The notes beneath the pieces are model-generated. The model was not told where the DNA came from, did no database searches, and worked only from the letters and a program-made list of their open reading frames with translations. Shown here in pieces: positions 1 to 4,963 of a stretch of DNA of 64,000 nucleotides. How positions within the stretch are numbered: position 1 is the first letter of the stretch; the number at the start of each line of letters is the position of its first letter. The DNA is from Providencia hangzhouensis (GTDB lineage: Bacteria; Pseudomonadota; Gammaproteobacteria; Enterobacterales; Enterobacteriaceae): NCBI RefSeq assembly GCF_029193595.2, contig NZ_CP135052.1:1612001-1676000 (forward strand), in the 5' to 3' direction. The position numbers were made by a program, and so were the translations under genes.

Positions 1-415
1 CTGTACTTTAGTGGGTAACGACTCCCCAATTATCACACGCATTAAGAATTGGCAGATTGTGCCGAAGTTAGCCGAAGCGACAGCGGAGGCTGGTTTTGAT
101 GGCGCGATTAGCGCCCCTTGGAGTTCTGTCAATAACTGTACGCAGGCACGGAGGACGATTAAAGACAAAGAAACGGTTATTCCCGATATTGTCAGAAAAG
201 CCAAAGAAATTGGCATCACTTTAGACCCCGAAAAAGACCCTTTCATGATCCATTCAATAGCAAGAGGGGCAATTTATACAGAAAACGGTCAAAGCGTGAA
301 GTTTCACGCGAATGGCCATATTCAAAAAATCGTATTTAAGTCAGATAAAGTCAAAAAATCACTGGCTCGGTGTGAACAAGCCATGTCTAGAATTCAATCA
401 CTCATAGGAAATTAA
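1..415 (+). CDS. A: Phage replication endonuclease (P2 gpA family), C-terminal part
   Basis: The reading frame is open to the left edge, so this is the tail of a longer gene; the GTG at position 11 is only an internal codon. The C-terminal stretch KNWQIVPK followed by APWSSVNNCT resembles the end of P2-type gpA proteins, which nick the phage origin and start rolling-circle replication with catalytic tyrosines that would lie outside the window. Its place, just before the accessory spot and the portal/terminase genes, is where P2-like phages carry gene A. It ends one base before the next gene, so translation may be coupled. The family call rests on a short region and on context. Confidence 0.7.
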   Translation, partial: CTLVGNDSPIITRIKNWQIVPKLAEATAEAGFDGAISAPWSSVNNCTQARRTIKDKETVIPDIVRKAKEIGITLDPEKDPFMIHSIARGAIYTENGQSVKFHANGHIQKIVFKSDKVKKSLARCEQAMSRIQSLIGN

Positions 416-416
416 T

Positions 417-1115
417 ATGATGCTAAAAATATTTAACTATAAAATTGATATTACAAATGAATTGCTATTCAGTTTACAAAAAGAACAATTGAATTTTTTG
501 CCGTGGCAAAAGCGTTGGTATCAAAATAGATTTTTGAAAAATAGGTCATTAAAAAAAGCTCGTCAGGTTGGAGCAGATTATTACTTTTTATTTGAAGCTT
601 TACAGGATGCCTGCTTAACAGGCAGAGATAAAATATTTATGGGTAATATTCCAGTAGAATATTTATTAAAACATGCAGGAATAAAAGAATTTAAAGCCGC
701 CAGAAATTATATTTTTAATTTAAGTAATGGTGCACATATTTATGTGTTAAATCATGAGTATTTTAACGATATACCTTTAGGCGGGGTATCTGGTGATGTT
801 TATGTATCAGAGTGGTCATGGATTGAGAATTTACGCGATGTTGTATCGCTAGCTGGGGCATTTTCAGCGCATGATAAATGGCGAGTTACTCTCTACTCCT
901 ATAGGTCAAAATGTGATGTTTCTTCTAATCGCGGTAATTCAATATTGTGTGATTCATTATTAGGCCGTGATTATCATTATGATTTGGTTCAAAACTCAGA
1001 ATATGAATTAGGTAGTCTGTTTAAAATTAATACTAAAAAGTTAAACGATTGGGAATTGATATTCACTAATGAAATAGCTCAAGAAATGATTTTTTGTTGT
1101 TTTAACGATAACTAA
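417..1115 (+). CDS. Terminase-ATPase-like protein of unknown function (prophage accessory gene)
   Basis: This 232-residue protein aligns by eye with residues 150-300 of the large terminase encoded at 3176-4963. The shared pattern includes KARQVGADYYFLFEA against KSRQIGATWYFSFEA, the block ACLTG, and HDKWRVTLYSY against HDRWRITYFST. The Walker A-like loop (residues 48-55) has lost the usual pattern. The Walker B aspartate is a serine in YVSEW (residues 129-133). The whole nuclease domain is missing, so it is probably not a working packaging motor. It has a good ribosome site (AGGAAA) and starts one base after gene A. It is clearly more AT-rich than the phage genes around it. P2 carries its exclusion genes tin and old in this position, so an anti-phage role is possible but unproven. 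Confidence 0.55.
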   Translation: MMLKIFNYKIDITNELLFSLQKEQLNFLPWQKRWYQNRFLKNRSLKKARQVGADYYFLFEALQDACLTGRDKIFMGNIPVEYLLKHAGIKEFKAARNYIFNLSNGAHIYVLNHEYFNDIPLGGVSGDVYVSEWSWIENLRDVVSLAGAFSAHDKWRVTLYSYRSKCDVSSNRGNSILCDSLLGRDYHYDLVQNSEYELGSLFKINTKKLNDWELIFTNEIAQEMIFCCFNDN

Positions 1116-1128
1116 GGGAGTAGAACTA

Positions 1129-1500
1129 ATGGCAAAAACAGCAGCAGAGCGCAAAGCGGAACAGCGTAAACGACAAAAAGACAGTGGCGAAACGAAATTT
1201 GAGCTGATTGTCGATAGTCAAGAATTGGAAATGTTGAAAAATAATTGTGCTATTCGTCGACCAGGGCGGGAGCCTTACGAAATGAATGAGTACATTCAAC
1301 TATTAATTCGCCAAGATACTGCTCGACTAAGTGACAAAATTCACGAGTTATCAAAATCAACCTGTAAAAGATGTGGTGAGCAATTGCCTGTTAGTCAGTG
1401 TTGCTTATCGGGTGCGGCTGATTGTTGGAATACAAACGGCTGGCATGATTTGAAGTTGGATAATATTGCCGTGACATGTCACAAAGCGGATAGTTTATAA
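1129..1500 (+). CDS. Ribbon-helix-helix-like protein with C-terminal zinc-type cysteines
   Basis: The protein has 123 residues. Residues 1-20 are very basic (AERKAEQRKRQK). They are followed by a strand-helix-helix pattern (KFELIVDSQELEMLKNN, then EMNEYIQLLIRQD) typical of ribbon-helix-helix DNA-binding proteins. The C-terminal third has CKRCG and further cysteines plus a tryptophan-rich end, suggesting a zinc knuckle. Similar small proteins are frequent beside gene A in P2-like prophages, by recollection. A ribosome site (GGGAG) precedes the ATG, and the gap to the previous gene is 13 bases. It is likely a DNA-binding accessory regulator; no target is known. Confidence 0.55.
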   Translation: MAKTAAERKAEQRKRQKDSGETKFELIVDSQELEMLKNNCAIRRPGREPYEMNEYIQLLIRQDTARLSDKIHELSKSTCKRCGEQLPVSQCCLSGAADCWNTNGWHDLKLDNIAVTCHKADSL

Positions 1501-1511
1501 ATGAATCACAT

Positions 1512-1559
1512 AACCCTGTAATTCAAAAGAAATTTTAATTATTTCTGATTTACAGGGTT
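1512..1559 (+). terminator. Long hairpin between accessory genes, possible terminator
   Basis: There are perfect 10-base arms AACCCTGTAA (1512-1521) and TTACAGGGTT (1550-1559), with inner arms AGAAAT (1528-1533) and ATTTCT (1541-1546). It separates the gene-A transcription unit from the LexA-controlled gene. Only a short T run follows, so termination efficiency is uncertain. Confidence 0.5.
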
Positions 1560-1581
1560 TCCCAATGACTTTATTTATGTA

Positions 1582-1601
1582 TACTGTACAAATATCCAGT
1601 A
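1582..1601 (+). promoter_or_regulatory. LexA box of the prophage
   Basis: The 20-mer tactgtacaaatatccagta matches the LexA consensus at 17 of 20 positions, with a perfect CTGT half and CCAG in place of ACAG in the other half. It overlaps -10 like hexamers TATACT (1580-1585) and TATACA (1600-1605) and lies 20 bases before the next ATG. This points to SOS control of the small gene downstream. Confidence 0.75.
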
Positions 1602-1620
1602 TACAAATGGGAATTTGAAT

Positions 1621-1842
1621 ATGAGCGATTTATTACAGGAATCGGTAGCGTTTGAGCGCATTAGTGTTATTGCAAAGCTAGGGAGTTTAGAGGGTTGCAA
1701 CCATTATGAGCGTCAAGTTGTACTCACACTGATTACTGAACTTGCAGACGGTGCAAGGGAAGAAATAGCAAAAAAGAGCAATCAAAAAATTAGGCTGCTA
1801 AATAGCAGCCCTGATGTAAATCAGCAATCATGCACCCTTTGA
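1621..1842 (+). CDS. SOS-regulated small phage protein, putative antirepressor (Tum-like position)
   Basis: A 73-residue protein begins at the ATG preceded by GGGAA at a spacing of seven; the upstream TTG at 1615 is less likely. It is predicted mostly helical and has no clear domain. It lies directly behind a LexA box and just before the portal/terminase genes. In phage 186 the LexA-controlled antirepressor gene tum sits in the same region, and Salmonella prophages use LexA-controlled small antirepressors to induce. By position and control it probably helps inactivate the phage repressor after DNA damage. No sequence similarity to Tum is claimed. Its last 15 bases overlap the end of the convergent ogr gene. 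Confidence 0.5.
   Translation: MSDLLQESVAFERISVIAKLGSLEGCNHYERQVVLTLITELADGAREEIAKKSNQKIRLLNSSPDVNQQSCTL
1782..1810 (-). terminator. Terminator of the P-Q-ogr operon, inside the opposing gene
   Basis: GGCTGCTA (1793-1800) pairs with TAGCAGCC (1803-1810). Read on the minus strand, the hairpin is followed by TAATTTTTTGA, a standard U tract. It lies inside the 3' part of the convergent small SOS gene. Confidence 0.65.
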
Positions 1843-2145
1843 GGTTAATAACCCTAGCGCCAGTTGGCGCTGTTCAGGGTTAAATTTCTCAATCATGGAT
1901 TGAATCAAATCATCTGAGTGGGCACTAGGGCTGATTGTGTGACTAAACGTTAGATTTAAAACATAGGTGTGACCGCATTCAACATCATTACAGGCGCAAT
2001 AAAGGTCTGAAATTTCACGATGTTTACGATTCGATTTGCGAATTGTCGCGCGTTGGCCGCAAATGGGGCAGAATATTTTTAATACTCGCACGTTCCAGAC
2101 CTCCGGTTGTTGATAACGTCTTAATTTTACCTTATTTTTAGACAT
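1828..2145 (-). CDS. ogr: Ogr/Delta-type zinc-finger activator of late phage genes
   Basis: The protein has 105 residues. After a short basic start it has FCPICGQRATIRKS, then a CxC-type region ending in the ECGHTY motif. This is the CPxC...C....C zinc-binding layout of the Ogr/Delta family, which activates late promoters of P2-like phages by contacting the RNA polymerase alpha subunit. Its start codon shares one base with the portal stop codon (TAATG), so it is translationally coupled to Q and forms the last gene of the P-Q-ogr unit. In P2 itself ogr lies after gene D near attP, so this location differs. A terminator follows within its 3' overlap with the SOS gene. Confidence 0.8.
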   Translation of the reverse strand: MSKNKVKLRRYQQPEVWNVRVLKIFCPICGQRATIRKSNRKHREISDLYCACNDVECGHTYVLNLTFSHTISPSAHSDDLIQSMIEKFNPEQRQLALGLLTSKGA

Positions 2146-3176
2146 TATTCATTTTCCTTAATGATATTTTGACGAAAATTCAATTTCAAAGACTCATTTC
2201 TACCGATTTCACTATTGACCGCATTCATAAATAAATTTTGTACGGGGATAACTTCATCTTGCCGATAGGCTTCTCTTGCTTTTAAGGGGTCACCTAAGCC
2301 GCCAGAGCCTAAGCCGGGAATGATGCCAGCAAGGCCTGCGGGGAAGCGGTGAGCATTCAAGATATCTTGCGCACTAATACTTTTCACATTGCTAAACTCA
2401 TCGTTTGCAGAGATATCCCCAACGGGAATAAATTTGATGCCGTCAGGGTCACCATTCGGCACACTCACAAACATAGTTTCAAAATTACCAATCCCTTTGC
2501 TTTGGCTGAGTTTTTGGATAATTTGTTCTTCTACTTCGTCGGTCATATTCGGGTCATTACAGTAAATCATCCCGCCCGTGTGTGCCCCGTTATGGTAATA
2601 ACGACGACGAAATATAGTGGCTTCACTGTTTAGTAAAGCTGCATGGATACCGCCAATATAGTCCGGTAAACCGTAGACTTGCTGTTGTGGGTCATACATC
2701 TTGATATAAATGATTTCATCAGGGGTATAAACTAGATGTTCACCTTCTTGTAAAATGACAAAATCACCGTCTTTACGCCTGCGCAAGTAAAGTGAGGGCA
2801 AAACCTCCAGTCCGATGGTTTCGCCCCAACCGTTACGCACTTTTAAAATGGCCACATCACCAAACAAAAAATAATTAAAAACGGCCGCTTTTAGTTGCTC
2901 ATGGGTTAGGCCACCGCCTATATAGTCACTGGTAACCATATTATGACGAGCATAAAGAACGCCCCCATGTTGGCCATTTAAATTCACTAACTGCGCAAGT
3001 GCTTCACGGTCTATTGGGGGTGTCCAATGGTCAAAATCATTGTCATACCAAATATTTTGATAATCAGTATGAGTCGTTAAAATCGGCTCTGGTTTGCCAA
3101 GAACGATGCTAAATGCTTTTTTTGGCGCAGTCGTAGTCTGTGTCATTTGTTTACGAGAATTCCGTTTCTTTTTCAT
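2145..3176 (-). CDS. Q: Phage portal protein (gpQ)
   Basis: The 343 residues are close to the 344 of P2 gpQ. The portal forms the dodecameric DNA gate at the capsid vertex, to which terminase docks and through which DNA enters and leaves. Family-like stretches are PPIDREALAQLVNLNGQHGGVLYARHNM near the start, the YNYFLFGDVA-type region, and the HRFPAGLAGIIPGLGSGGLGDPLKA region near residue 290. The start shares a base with the P stop codon (TAATG) and the end overlaps the ogr start, giving a tight three-gene operon opposed to the rest of the late genes, as in all P2 relatives. Confidence 0.93.
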   Translation of the reverse strand: MKKKRNSRKQMTQTTTAPKKAFSIVLGKPEPILTTHTDYQNIWYDNDFDHWTPPIDREALAQLVNLNGQHGGVLYARHNMVTSDYIGGGLTHEQLKAAVFNYFLFGDVAILKVRNGWGETIGLEVLPSLYLRRRKDGDFVILQEGEHLVYTPDEIIYIKMYDPQQQVYGLPDYIGGIHAALLNSEATIFRRRYYHNGAHTGGMIYCNDPNMTDEVEEQIIQKLSQSKGIGNFETMFVSVPNGDPDGIKFIPVGDISANDEFSNVKSISAQDILNAHRFPAGLAGIIPGLGSGGLGDPLKAREAYRQDEVIPVQNLFMNAVNSEIGRNESLKLNFRQNIIKENE

Positions 3177-4963
3177 TATGCAGCCTTTGGTAATATATAT
3201 TTAGATTTGCGCTTTTTATCCGTGTTAAGCGGCTCTTTAATTACTGCGTGAGACGTTGCCCAGAAAACATCCGCGTGGCCTGTTTCTTGTGTTCTATCTG
3301 CGACGAATGTCATTGCGCCACCTTTACCTGTAGTTGTGTGACGGATGCATAAAAATGACGCGGGGATTTCTTTCTGATCCATATCCCATTCAATGCGTTC
3401 TTCGTCGACAATATCTATCATTTTCATCACAAGTTGCGTTTTCATTTGCAGACTATAAAGAATGGGCTGTGTGATACGTGGCGCAAAATCTTGCACCATT
3501 TCATATACGGATTGACCTATCCCTGTGGTATCAATGCCAATATGTGTGAAACGATATTTCTTGGTTAAGTCTTCAATCAATTTTGCTTGATGTCGCCAGC
3601 TAAACCCTTGCCAATAAAATGTTGCCAATACCCGAAATACTTCGGGTGCCATCATGGGTGGTGCAACGATAACAAATGTTGACGTGTCGCCAGAGCGTGC
3701 AGGGTCATACCCGCCCCACACTTCGCGATTGCCAAATGGGCGCGGGTCGTCGGGTTTATGGTCTTCCCATAAATTCACATCAACACCGCATTTCATTAAG
3801 GTGTCATATTTAAAGACAGACTTACCACTATCAATAAATACGCACATATACAACATGTTGAATGTGTCAGGGTTATATCGTTGTCGTAATTTATCGATAG
3901 ACGCTAAGTTAAAGCCGCCTTTTATCGCATCTTCAAGGGTAATGATATAGCGCCATTGCCCATCGGGGCACTCACGCCCCCCGTCACGCATTTCTTTCTC
4001 ACTTGGAAACTCGACGTTCTTACGTTTAGGGTCATTGCCGCGCCATTCATCCCCCATCCAAAATGGATAAGCTGGATGTGTTTTAGAGCTAGGCGTGGAA
4101 AAATAGGTGATACGCCAGCGGTCATGTGTTGCCATTGCTGATGCAACATCATTTAAGCGTTTAAAATCAGGAACCCAAAAATATTCGTCACAATATAAAT
4201 GACCACTATAAGATTGAGCCGTGTTTTTATTGGTGGATAAGAAGCGCAGCTCTGCGCCATTGCTTAAACGGATGGGATTACCCTTTAGCGATACACCAAA
4301 GAATTGCTCCGCAATATTCACAATATATGACCGGAATACTTCCGCTTGGGGTTTTGACGCAGATAAAAATATCTGTGGGTCACCCGTCAAGCAGGCATTC
4401 TCAAAGGCTTCAAAGGAGAAGTACCACGTTGCCCCGATTTGACGGCTTTTTAATATATTGCGCACTGCCTGCGTGATATTAATGCGCAAATGCTTTTGAT
4501 AACCAAACAGCATTTCATCAGCAAAGCGTTGGAAATCTTCTGGCGTCAGGCTAGAAATGTCATTTTTACGATAGCGTTTCTTTTTCTTCGGTTCGCCATC
4601 TTCATTCATTGCATAATCAGCACCGCCTTGCATATCCGCTGATTGCGATTTTAACGCTGCCATTTTTTCAGCGTGTTTATTCGCTTGCGCCATTAATTTA
4701 ACGTGGCTAGCAATCAAGCGGTCTAACTCATCTAATTCAAGCTCCGTTTTTTTAGTTCGCTCGCTCAATAAAACAATGCGACGGTTAATTGCTTCAATCA
4801 CACTCTCATGACTGAGCATATCTGCCCAATTCCATTTTTCTGCCCAATAGTAAACAATCCGACGATTAGGCAGGCTCAATTCCTCCGCGATTTCCGCTGG
4901 AGTATAGCGTCGCAAATATAACGATTTTGCGACCTGTATTTTTGCATCCGTGTATTTAGCCAT
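3176..4963 (-). CDS. P: Terminase large subunit, ATPase and nuclease (gpP)
   Basis: This protein of 595 residues (P2 gpP has 590) is the motor that pumps DNA into the procapsid and cuts it at cos. Residues 1-50 hold a helix-turn-helix (TPAEIAEELSLPNRRIVYYW). The ATPase has a variant Walker A, SRQIGATW (173-180), Walker B LYCDE (256-260) and the coupling region YFSTP (287-291). The nuclease half carries the acidic motifs GGYDPARSGDTS and GIDTTGIG, and a late aspartate in HADVFW. It is the first gene of the minus-strand operon and diverges from the scaffold gene across 161 bases that must hold both late promoters. Confidence 0.95.
   Translation of the reverse strand: MAKYTDAKIQVAKSLYLRRYTPAEIAEELSLPNRRIVYYWAEKWNWADMLSHESVIEAINRRIVLLSERTKKTELELDELDRLIASHVKLMAQANKHAEKMAALKSQSADMQGGADYAMNEDGEPKKKKRYRKNDISSLTPEDFQRFADEMLFGYQKHLRINITQAVRNILKSRQIGATWYFSFEAFENACLTGDPQIFLSASKPQAEVFRSYIVNIAEQFFGVSLKGNPIRLSNGAELRFLSTNKNTAQSYSGHLYCDEYFWVPDFKRLNDVASAMATHDRWRITYFSTPSSKTHPAYPFWMGDEWRGNDPKRKNVEFPSEKEMRDGGRECPDGQWRYIITLEDAIKGGFNLASIDKLRQRYNPDTFNMLYMCVFIDSGKSVFKYDTLMKCGVDVNLWEDHKPDDPRPFGNREVWGGYDPARSGDTSTFVIVAPPMMAPEVFRVLATFYWQGFSWRHQAKLIEDLTKKYRFTHIGIDTTGIGQSVYEMVQDFAPRITQPILYSLQMKTQLVMKMIDIVDEERIEWDMDQKEIPASFLCIRHTTTGKGGAMTFVADRTQETGHADVFWATSHAVIKEPLNTDKKRKSKYILPKAA

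What the first reader, a model, noticed from the sequence alone, without database searches (positions are those of the whole stretch)
417..1115. Stripped terminase-like ATPase domain in the P2 defence hotspot
The sequence shows a 232-residue protein that follows the large terminase of the same prophage over its ATPase core but has lost the Walker A pattern, the Walker B aspartate and the whole nuclease. It is intact, has its own ribosome site, is AT-rich, and is coupled to gene A. In P2 the exclusion genes tin and old lie in this interval, and related phages use the spot for varied anti-phage genes (established). I infer that it may act as a decoy that jams the packaging motor, portal or DNA of incoming phages, or that limits the phage's own packaging. 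This is the best candidate for an undescribed system here.
Basis: partly seen in the sequence, partly recalled or inferred. Interest (0 to 1): 0.7.

Follow-up and report, generated by a model that had tools for sequence, protein, structure and literature searches.

The report
Terminase-motor look-alike, kin of 186 W
A phage dormant in this bacterium carries a small, intact look-alike of its own DNA-packaging motor that lacks the DNA-cutting part and two key residues; its relatives are optional, fast-changing add-on genes of P2-type phages, so it looks like a stand-in for the motor, but what it blocks or shields is not known.

Summary
Window 417-1115 (+) encodes an intact 232-aa protein covering only the ATPase domain of the P2-type large terminase gpP (own gpP: 3176-4963, minus strand). 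AlphaFold pLDDT is 90; the best PDB matches are TerL ATPase domains. Two corrections: the Walker A Lys and Gly and the catalytic Glu are kept, while the two presumed Mg2+ ligands are changed (Thr to Asp54, Asp to Ser131); and it is no singleton but kin of coliphage 186 gene W. In 186-type phages W sits between P and Q; in Providencia, Proteus and Xenorhabdus prophages the relative sits in the A-Q hotspot. A tree puts 42 of 43 stand-alone proteins on one branch off gpP; the 43rd is a second, independent birth at the P-Q site. The gene is optional (clean empty sites at both positions; 186-type W in 8 of 5426 E. coli genomes), under purifying selection, yet its dN is 5-6 times that of P, and it does not track its phage's gpP or gpQ once near-copies are removed. 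No promoter of its own was found, so expression is probably lytic, which argues against lysogen-expressed exclusion. Best guess: a lytic-phase gpP decoy, target unproven.

The parts
417..1115 (+). Stand-alone gpP-ATPase-like gene, 232 aa, W-like (class 1)
397..1128 (.). Segment of about 730 bp absent from the nearly identical prophage of G012, between the 3' end of gene A and the phrog_536 gene (bounds read by eye)
406..409 (+). AGGA, likely ribosome site of the gene
   Evidence: read from the sequence
555..581 (+). Walker A region KARQVGADY (residues 47-55): K, R and G kept, Thr to Asp54
795..827 (+). Walker B region GDVYVSEWSWI (residues 127-137 by gene position 126-136): Asp to Ser131, Glu132 kept
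2..415 (+). 3' end of replication gene A (709 aa in all; begins upstream of the window, L081:14286)
   Evidence: (phrog_91, nicking at origin)
1129..1500 (+). phrog_536 'transcriptional regulator', next gene; directly follows gene A in prophages that lack the insert
1828..2145 (-). Ogr/Delta-like zinc finger gene
2145..3176 (-). Portal gene Q, joined directly to P with no W between
   Evidence: named by similarity to annotated portals of related loci
3176..4963 (-). Full-length large terminase gene P (595 aa), the paralogue

Best explanation
It is an optional phage gene of the family of coliphage 186 W: a stand-alone copy of the gpP ATPase domain. Shown: resemblance to gpP and W, predicted fold, shared branch with W, two genomic niches, empty sites, purifying selection in relatives, fast evolution that does not follow the phage's own gpP. 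Inferred: it is made during lytic growth (from the replication operon here, from the P-Q operon in 186-type phages) and works as a decoy for gpP. It would occupy a partner that otherwise binds the terminase ATPase domain, without driving DNA, because the presumed Mg2+ ligands are changed and the nuclease is missing. The partner is more likely outside its own motor: a rival phage's or satellite's packaging complex, or a host sensor of terminase such as Avs1-3.
For: Anatomy: whole ATPase domain, no nuclease, no N-terminal region. Kin: 186 W and relatives; one branch off gpP holds 42 of 43 stand-alone rows. Second independent birth at the P-Q site (L108). Optional: empty sites in G012, G014 and two G018 prophages and in six W-less E. 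coli regions; 186-type W in 8 of 5426 E. coli genomes. Not tied to own gpP or gpQ: Mantel r 0.15 and 0.20 for 8 class 1 loci, -0.01 and 0.12 for 7 class 2 loci, none significant, while P-Q gives 0.97 and 0.75. dN 5-6 times that of P. No own promoter found. Avs1-3 sense the large terminase (passages of PMC12931631 and PMC12724215).
Against: No binding, packaging or plating data. With near-copies kept in, the short protein does correlate with gpP (r 0.45 for 10 class 1 loci, 0.75 for 9 class 2 loci), and 7-8 loci give little power. 186 W itself keeps Walker Thr, Asp and Glu, so loss of catalysis is not a family trait. The gene letter W of 186 suggests a classical mutant with a phenotype (recalled; the 186 papers tried were not held), which would fit a role in its own packaging. 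A decoy of a conserved protein might be expected to evolve slowly. Missing promoter matches are weak evidence.
Confidence: 0.48

Rival explanations
1. Accessory subunit or regulator of the phage's own motor: it joins gpP at the portal or at cos and tunes initiation or timing of packaging.
For: W lies between P and Q, overlapping both, in an operon with one promoter and terminator annotated. Independent birth at the same place in L108. W carries a letter of the classical 186 map (recalled).
Against: 186-like prophages without W have gpP 97.8-98.0% identical to that of 186. No co-variation with own gpP or gpQ after removal of near-copies. In class 1 phages the gene lies outside the packaging operon.
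Confidence: 0.27
2. One reading: expressed from the prophage, it poisons the packaging motor, portal or DNA of incoming phages (superinfection exclusion).
For: Lies in the A-Q interval that holds old, tin and other defence genes (PMC9122126, section 10). A relative in Proteus prophages has a KAP NTPase matching PADLOC PDC-S20 next to it. Tab of phage JBD26, lodged between terminase genes, is a precedent for blocking a rival's assembly (passages of PMC10884400).
Against: No + strand promoter-like site in window 1-1700 nor in 11 of 12 class 1 upstream stretches (about 6 expected by chance in the 12, 1 found). No PADLOC match. 186 W is annotated in a late operon.
Confidence: 0.16
3. Decayed or neutral duplicate of gpP.
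For: Lost domains and changed motifs. Broken copies exist: two stops in G016 and a 176-aa remnant in phage 500465-1.
Against: dN/dS 0.10-0.30 in 24 of 24 pairs computed (15 of the 186 group, 9 of class 1). K47 and G52 kept in 64 of 64 rows. Intact frames with ribosome sites in many loci.
Confidence: 0.03

Closest known systems
Coliphage 186 W protein (AAC34147.1), with PSP3 gp2, EtG_02 and Yersinia phage vB_YenM_56.17 gp020
   Same: Stand-alone gpP ATPase domain of 248-254 aa, no nuclease, same branch off gpP
   Different: W lies between P and Q in the late operon and 186 W keeps Walker Thr, Asp and Glu; the window gene lies after gene A and has Asp54 and Ser131. Identity of window and 186 W about 17% in the alignment
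gpP, large terminase of P2-type phages (own copy 3176-4963)
   Same: ATPase fold, Q motif, K, R, G and catalytic Glu
   Different: No N-terminal region, no RNase H-like nuclease, both presumed Mg2+ ligands changed
P2 tin and old, hotspot exclusion genes
   Same: Same interval between gpA and gpQ (PMC9122126, section 10)
   Different: No sequence link was sought or seen; no evidence of expression in the lysogen or of defence
Tab of Pseudomonas phage JBD26 (passages of PMC10884400)
   Same: Phage gene lodged between terminase genes that interferes with a rival's virion assembly
   Different: 83 residues, own promoter, targets the tape measure protein, has an anti-Tab partner
Avs1-3 sensors of large terminase (passages of PMC12931631 and PMC12724215)
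   Different: They are host sensors; a link to the window protein is only inferred

Membership tests
186 W-like stand-alone gpP ATPase paralogues | ATPase domain of gpP as a separate protein of about 225-255 aa without nuclease | tested here: met
186 W-like stand-alone gpP ATPase paralogues | On the same branch off gpP as 186 W | tested here: met
   (motif columns left out); long branches noted by the program
186 W-like stand-alone gpP ATPase paralogues | Position between P and Q in the late operon | tested here: not met
   window P and Q are directly joined; the gene follows gene A
186 W-like stand-alone gpP ATPase paralogues | Same biochemical function as 186 W | not testable with these tools
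   function of W not found in the held papers
Functional P2-type large terminase (gpP) | C-terminal RNase H-like nuclease | tested here: not met
   no Terminase_6C match; the protein ends with the ATPase domain
Functional P2-type large terminase (gpP) | Walker A Thr/Ser and Walker B Asp | tested here: not met
   Asp54 and Ser131
Functional P2-type large terminase (gpP) | TerL ATPase fold | tested here: met
P2 hotspot anti-phage system | Encoded between gpA and gpQ | tested here: met
P2 hotspot anti-phage system | Match to a known defence family | tested here: not met
   Searches (window protein; three relatives): no PADLOC match
P2 hotspot anti-phage system | Own promoter, active in the lysogen | tested here: inconclusive
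   no consensus site found; consensus scans are weak evidence
P2 hotspot anti-phage system | Measured resistance to phage | not testable with these tools
   needs plating assays

The most novel reading that the evidence does not exclude
P2-type phages have at least twice split off the ATPase domain of their own terminase as a separate protein at the P-Q site. One branch moved into the replication operon of Morganellaceae phages, changed its Mg2+ ligands, and became a lytic-phase terminase decoy that spreads between phages irrespective of their terminase, shielding gpP from host terminase sensors or poisoning rival packaging motors.
Probability: 0.4. Interest if true: 0.78.

Novelty: new variant of a known kind. 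Interest (0 to 1): 0.56.

Why it matters
W is a named gene of a model phage, yet several records label it a terminase subunit. If W-like proteins are exchangeable terminase mimics, they are a phage-phage or phage-host conflict module hidden in plain sight, and one that can be tested at once with 186, P2, P4 and laboratory E. coli. Genes of about 230-250 aa annotated 'terminase large subunit' in P2-type phages would need a second look.

Tried and rejected
Single-sequence scans of viral contigs and genome contigs found no relative; scans with the alignment found 8 and 5 loci. Sequence comparison with PDB chains found no relative (one chance hit at E 0.66; none). Decay was rejected for the relatives. 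Co-evolution with own gpP or gpQ: present with near-copies, absent without them. Co-variation of the Walker A and Walker B positions is perfect for the Thr and Asp rows but rests on 2-3 changes on the tree, with only 2 independent pairs, so no significance is claimed. Literature: listings showed no paper on W-like proteins; two 186 papers tried by DOI are not held; absence from print is not claimed. A test of host Avs systems or P4-like satellites against presence of the gene was thought of and not run. Rows dropped: five (fragments and broken copies) from the first tree; those five plus four near-copies from the second, which used 12 of the new proteins; from the motif count four proteins and everything outside 200-275 aa. 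A few of its 64 rows may be pieces of gpP.

Full report
What is there. Window 417-1115 (+) is an intact 232-codon frame with an AGGA ribosome site, starting one base after the stop of replication gene A. The gene has 30% G+C, the 400 nt before it 43%. In the joined upstream sequence it is the eighth of a run of plus-strand frames that begins at L081:11735 and includes gene A (frames of 60 aa or more, not curated genes). It is followed by the phrog_536 gene; on the other strand lie ogr, portal Q and terminase P.

Relation to gpP. The protein matches the window's gpP over residues 30-164 at 35% and PHROG_3746 at E 3.4e-29; NCBIfam and PADLOC give nothing. Aligned to gpP, KSRQIGATW becomes KARQVGADY and LYCDEYFW becomes VYVSEWSW. 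K47, R49, G52, the Q motif and the catalytic Glu132 stay; both presumed Mg2+ ligands change (the roles of these residues are recalled from TerL biochemistry, not from a call). Across 64 stand-alone rows K47 and G52 are kept in 64 and Glu in 63; 31 of 31 rows with Asp at the Walker A position lack the Walker B Asp, 30 of 30 with Thr keep it, and of three with Ser two lack it. This reflects only 2-3 changes on the tree. Asp54 with Ser131 could be a swap that keeps one carboxylate and one hydroxyl near the metal, so loss of catalysis is likely, not shown.

The family. A protein search found 11 stand-alone homologues; a profile search found 61 proteins, some of them gpP pieces. tblastn with one relative led to phage 186: W protein, 1215-1961 of U32222, between the gpP and gpQ homologues, with a B-dependent promoter p12 and a terminator tW annotated. 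PSP3, EtG, Midge and a Yersinia phage show the same order. I call the P-Q form class 2 and the A-Q form class 1. Class 1 position was seen in the window and 13 other loci (L004-L008, L010-L016, L092; L013 and L015 look like second records of L005 and L007), and in 14 of 14 P and Q are directly joined; L009 ends before P. A gene A homologue lies upstream in 12 of 16 class 1 loci examined, sometimes with other genes between; none was found in L006, L009, L014 and L089. In seven class 2 stretches of 12-16 kb (L077, L082-L087) no second stand-alone copy was found. For proteins known only the position is unknown.

Origin. In the first tree 16 gpP rows lie on one side of a branch (100/100), 23 class 1 rows form one group (100/100), and the 11 class 2 rows lie between. 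With the motif columns left out and 61 rows, class 1 again is one group (100/99), and 42 of 43 stand-alone rows lie on one side of a branch from gpP (100/100). The exception, the W of L108 from another family of the order, groups with its own gpP (100/98), and a clade of gpP without it is rejected (AU p 0.024; the test was named after the first tree was seen, and long branches are in play). L108 W is 65% identical to its gpP over 245 residues, 186 W 39% over 235. So stand-alone copies probably arose at least twice at the P-Q site. The program warned of long branches; the order within class 2 is not safe.

Optional. G012 carries a nearly identical prophage in which gene A runs into the phrog_536 gene; the window has about 730 bp more. 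Three further prophages of this type (L097, L098, L099) lack the gene too. In E. coli 245 of 5426 genomes match the 186 P-W-Q stretch and 8 hold the 186-type W; more diverged W alleles, such as that of Escherichia phage 500465-1, would escape that DNA search. Of 40 rows listed evenly down the ranking, 17 have the P and Q pieces with a gap of W size, 2 the whole stretch, and 21 only one end. Six annotated W-less regions (L102-L107) have P followed directly by Q; the alignment of two of them shows a clean insert between the P stop and the Q start. gpP of those two is 97.8-98.0% identical to 186 gpP, gpQ 96% and 82%.

Evolution. dN/dS of the stand-alone gene is 0.10-0.30 in 15 pairs of the 186 group and 0.17-0.28 in nine class 1 pairs. 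Mean dN is 0.037 (W), 0.006 (P) and 0.011 (Q) in the first set at mean dS 0.23, 0.19 and 0.22; in four class 1 pairs it is 0.063, 0.012 and 0.012 at dS 0.28, 0.41 and 0.45. Distances of the short protein do not follow those of gpP or gpQ once near-copies are removed (8 class 1 loci: r 0.15 and 0.20; 7 class 2 loci: r -0.01 and 0.12), while P and Q follow each other (0.97 and 0.75). With near-copies in, all correlate (r 0.45-0.83). L007 and L092 share 95% of gpP but 38% of the short protein; L082 and L086 share 87% of gpP but 38% of W.

Expression. No plus-strand sigma70-like site lies in window 1-1700. In 12 class 1 upstream stretches of 400 nt one site was found where about six were expected by shuffling; a frame of 60 aa or more ends within 18 bases of the start in all 12, some of those frames being short and unproven. 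That the P2 replication operon is silent in lysogens is recalled. Lytic expression is the likelier reading.

Function. The anatomy says gpP mimic. Its optional, exchangeable, fast-changing behaviour suggests that its partner is not only its own motor. Candidates are rival phages and satellites that use P2-type terminases (P4 does; PMC9122126, section 10) and host sensors of terminase (Avs1-3; passages of PMC12931631 and PMC12724215). I rate a lytic-phase decoy at about one half, without a firm target. Lysogen-expressed exclusion is possible but less likely. W being a letter of the classical 186 map suggests a mutant phenotype (recalled); since the portal start overlaps the W end, a nonsense mutation there could be polar (inference).

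Distribution. In the genus search 3 of 24 genomes have an intact class 1 gene and one a broken copy. In the family search (392 genomes, list cut) six intact W genes in five genomes were confirmed in fetched loci. In the order search (47 of 247 genomes matched) one full-length short frame, that of L108, was listed outside the window's family.

Noticed in passing
L108:6269-7033 (-): A second, independent gpP-ATPase duplicate between P and Q in another family of the order, 65% identical to its own gpP; it keeps the Walker B Asp but has His in place of the otherwise invariant Arg of Walker A.
   Followed up: partly
PHROG_3746: The family 'terminase large subunit' matches 186 W end to end (profile 123-374, E 5e-122), so it seems to describe W-like proteins rather than true terminases.
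   Followed up: no
window 1615-1842 (+): Small frame with matches to phrog_8554, phrog_698 and, weakly, DinI (phrog_189, E 6e-05), between the phrog_536 gene and ogr.
   Followed up: no
L005:8741-10090 (-): KAP NTPase matching PADLOC candidate defence family PDC-S20 (E 1.8e-76) next to the class 1 gene in Proteus prophages; L010 has a similar frame.
   Followed up: partly
L007:6768-7793 (+): C-5 cytosine DNA methylase between gene A and the class 1 gene in a Xenorhabdus prophage.
   Followed up: no
L095:17202-18986 (+): In the second P2-type prophage of the window's genome a 594-aa frame with a P-loop-like start lies beyond Q in the A-Q interval; judged by eye, not searched.
   Followed up: no
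L099:9498-10648 (-): Two frames that look by eye like an IS3-type transposase pair interrupt the portal gene of a G018 prophage.
   Followed up: no
L078:3683-5440: Escherichia phage 500465-1 has a shortened W (176 aa) and a portal split into two annotated genes, so this copy looks decayed.
   Followed up: no
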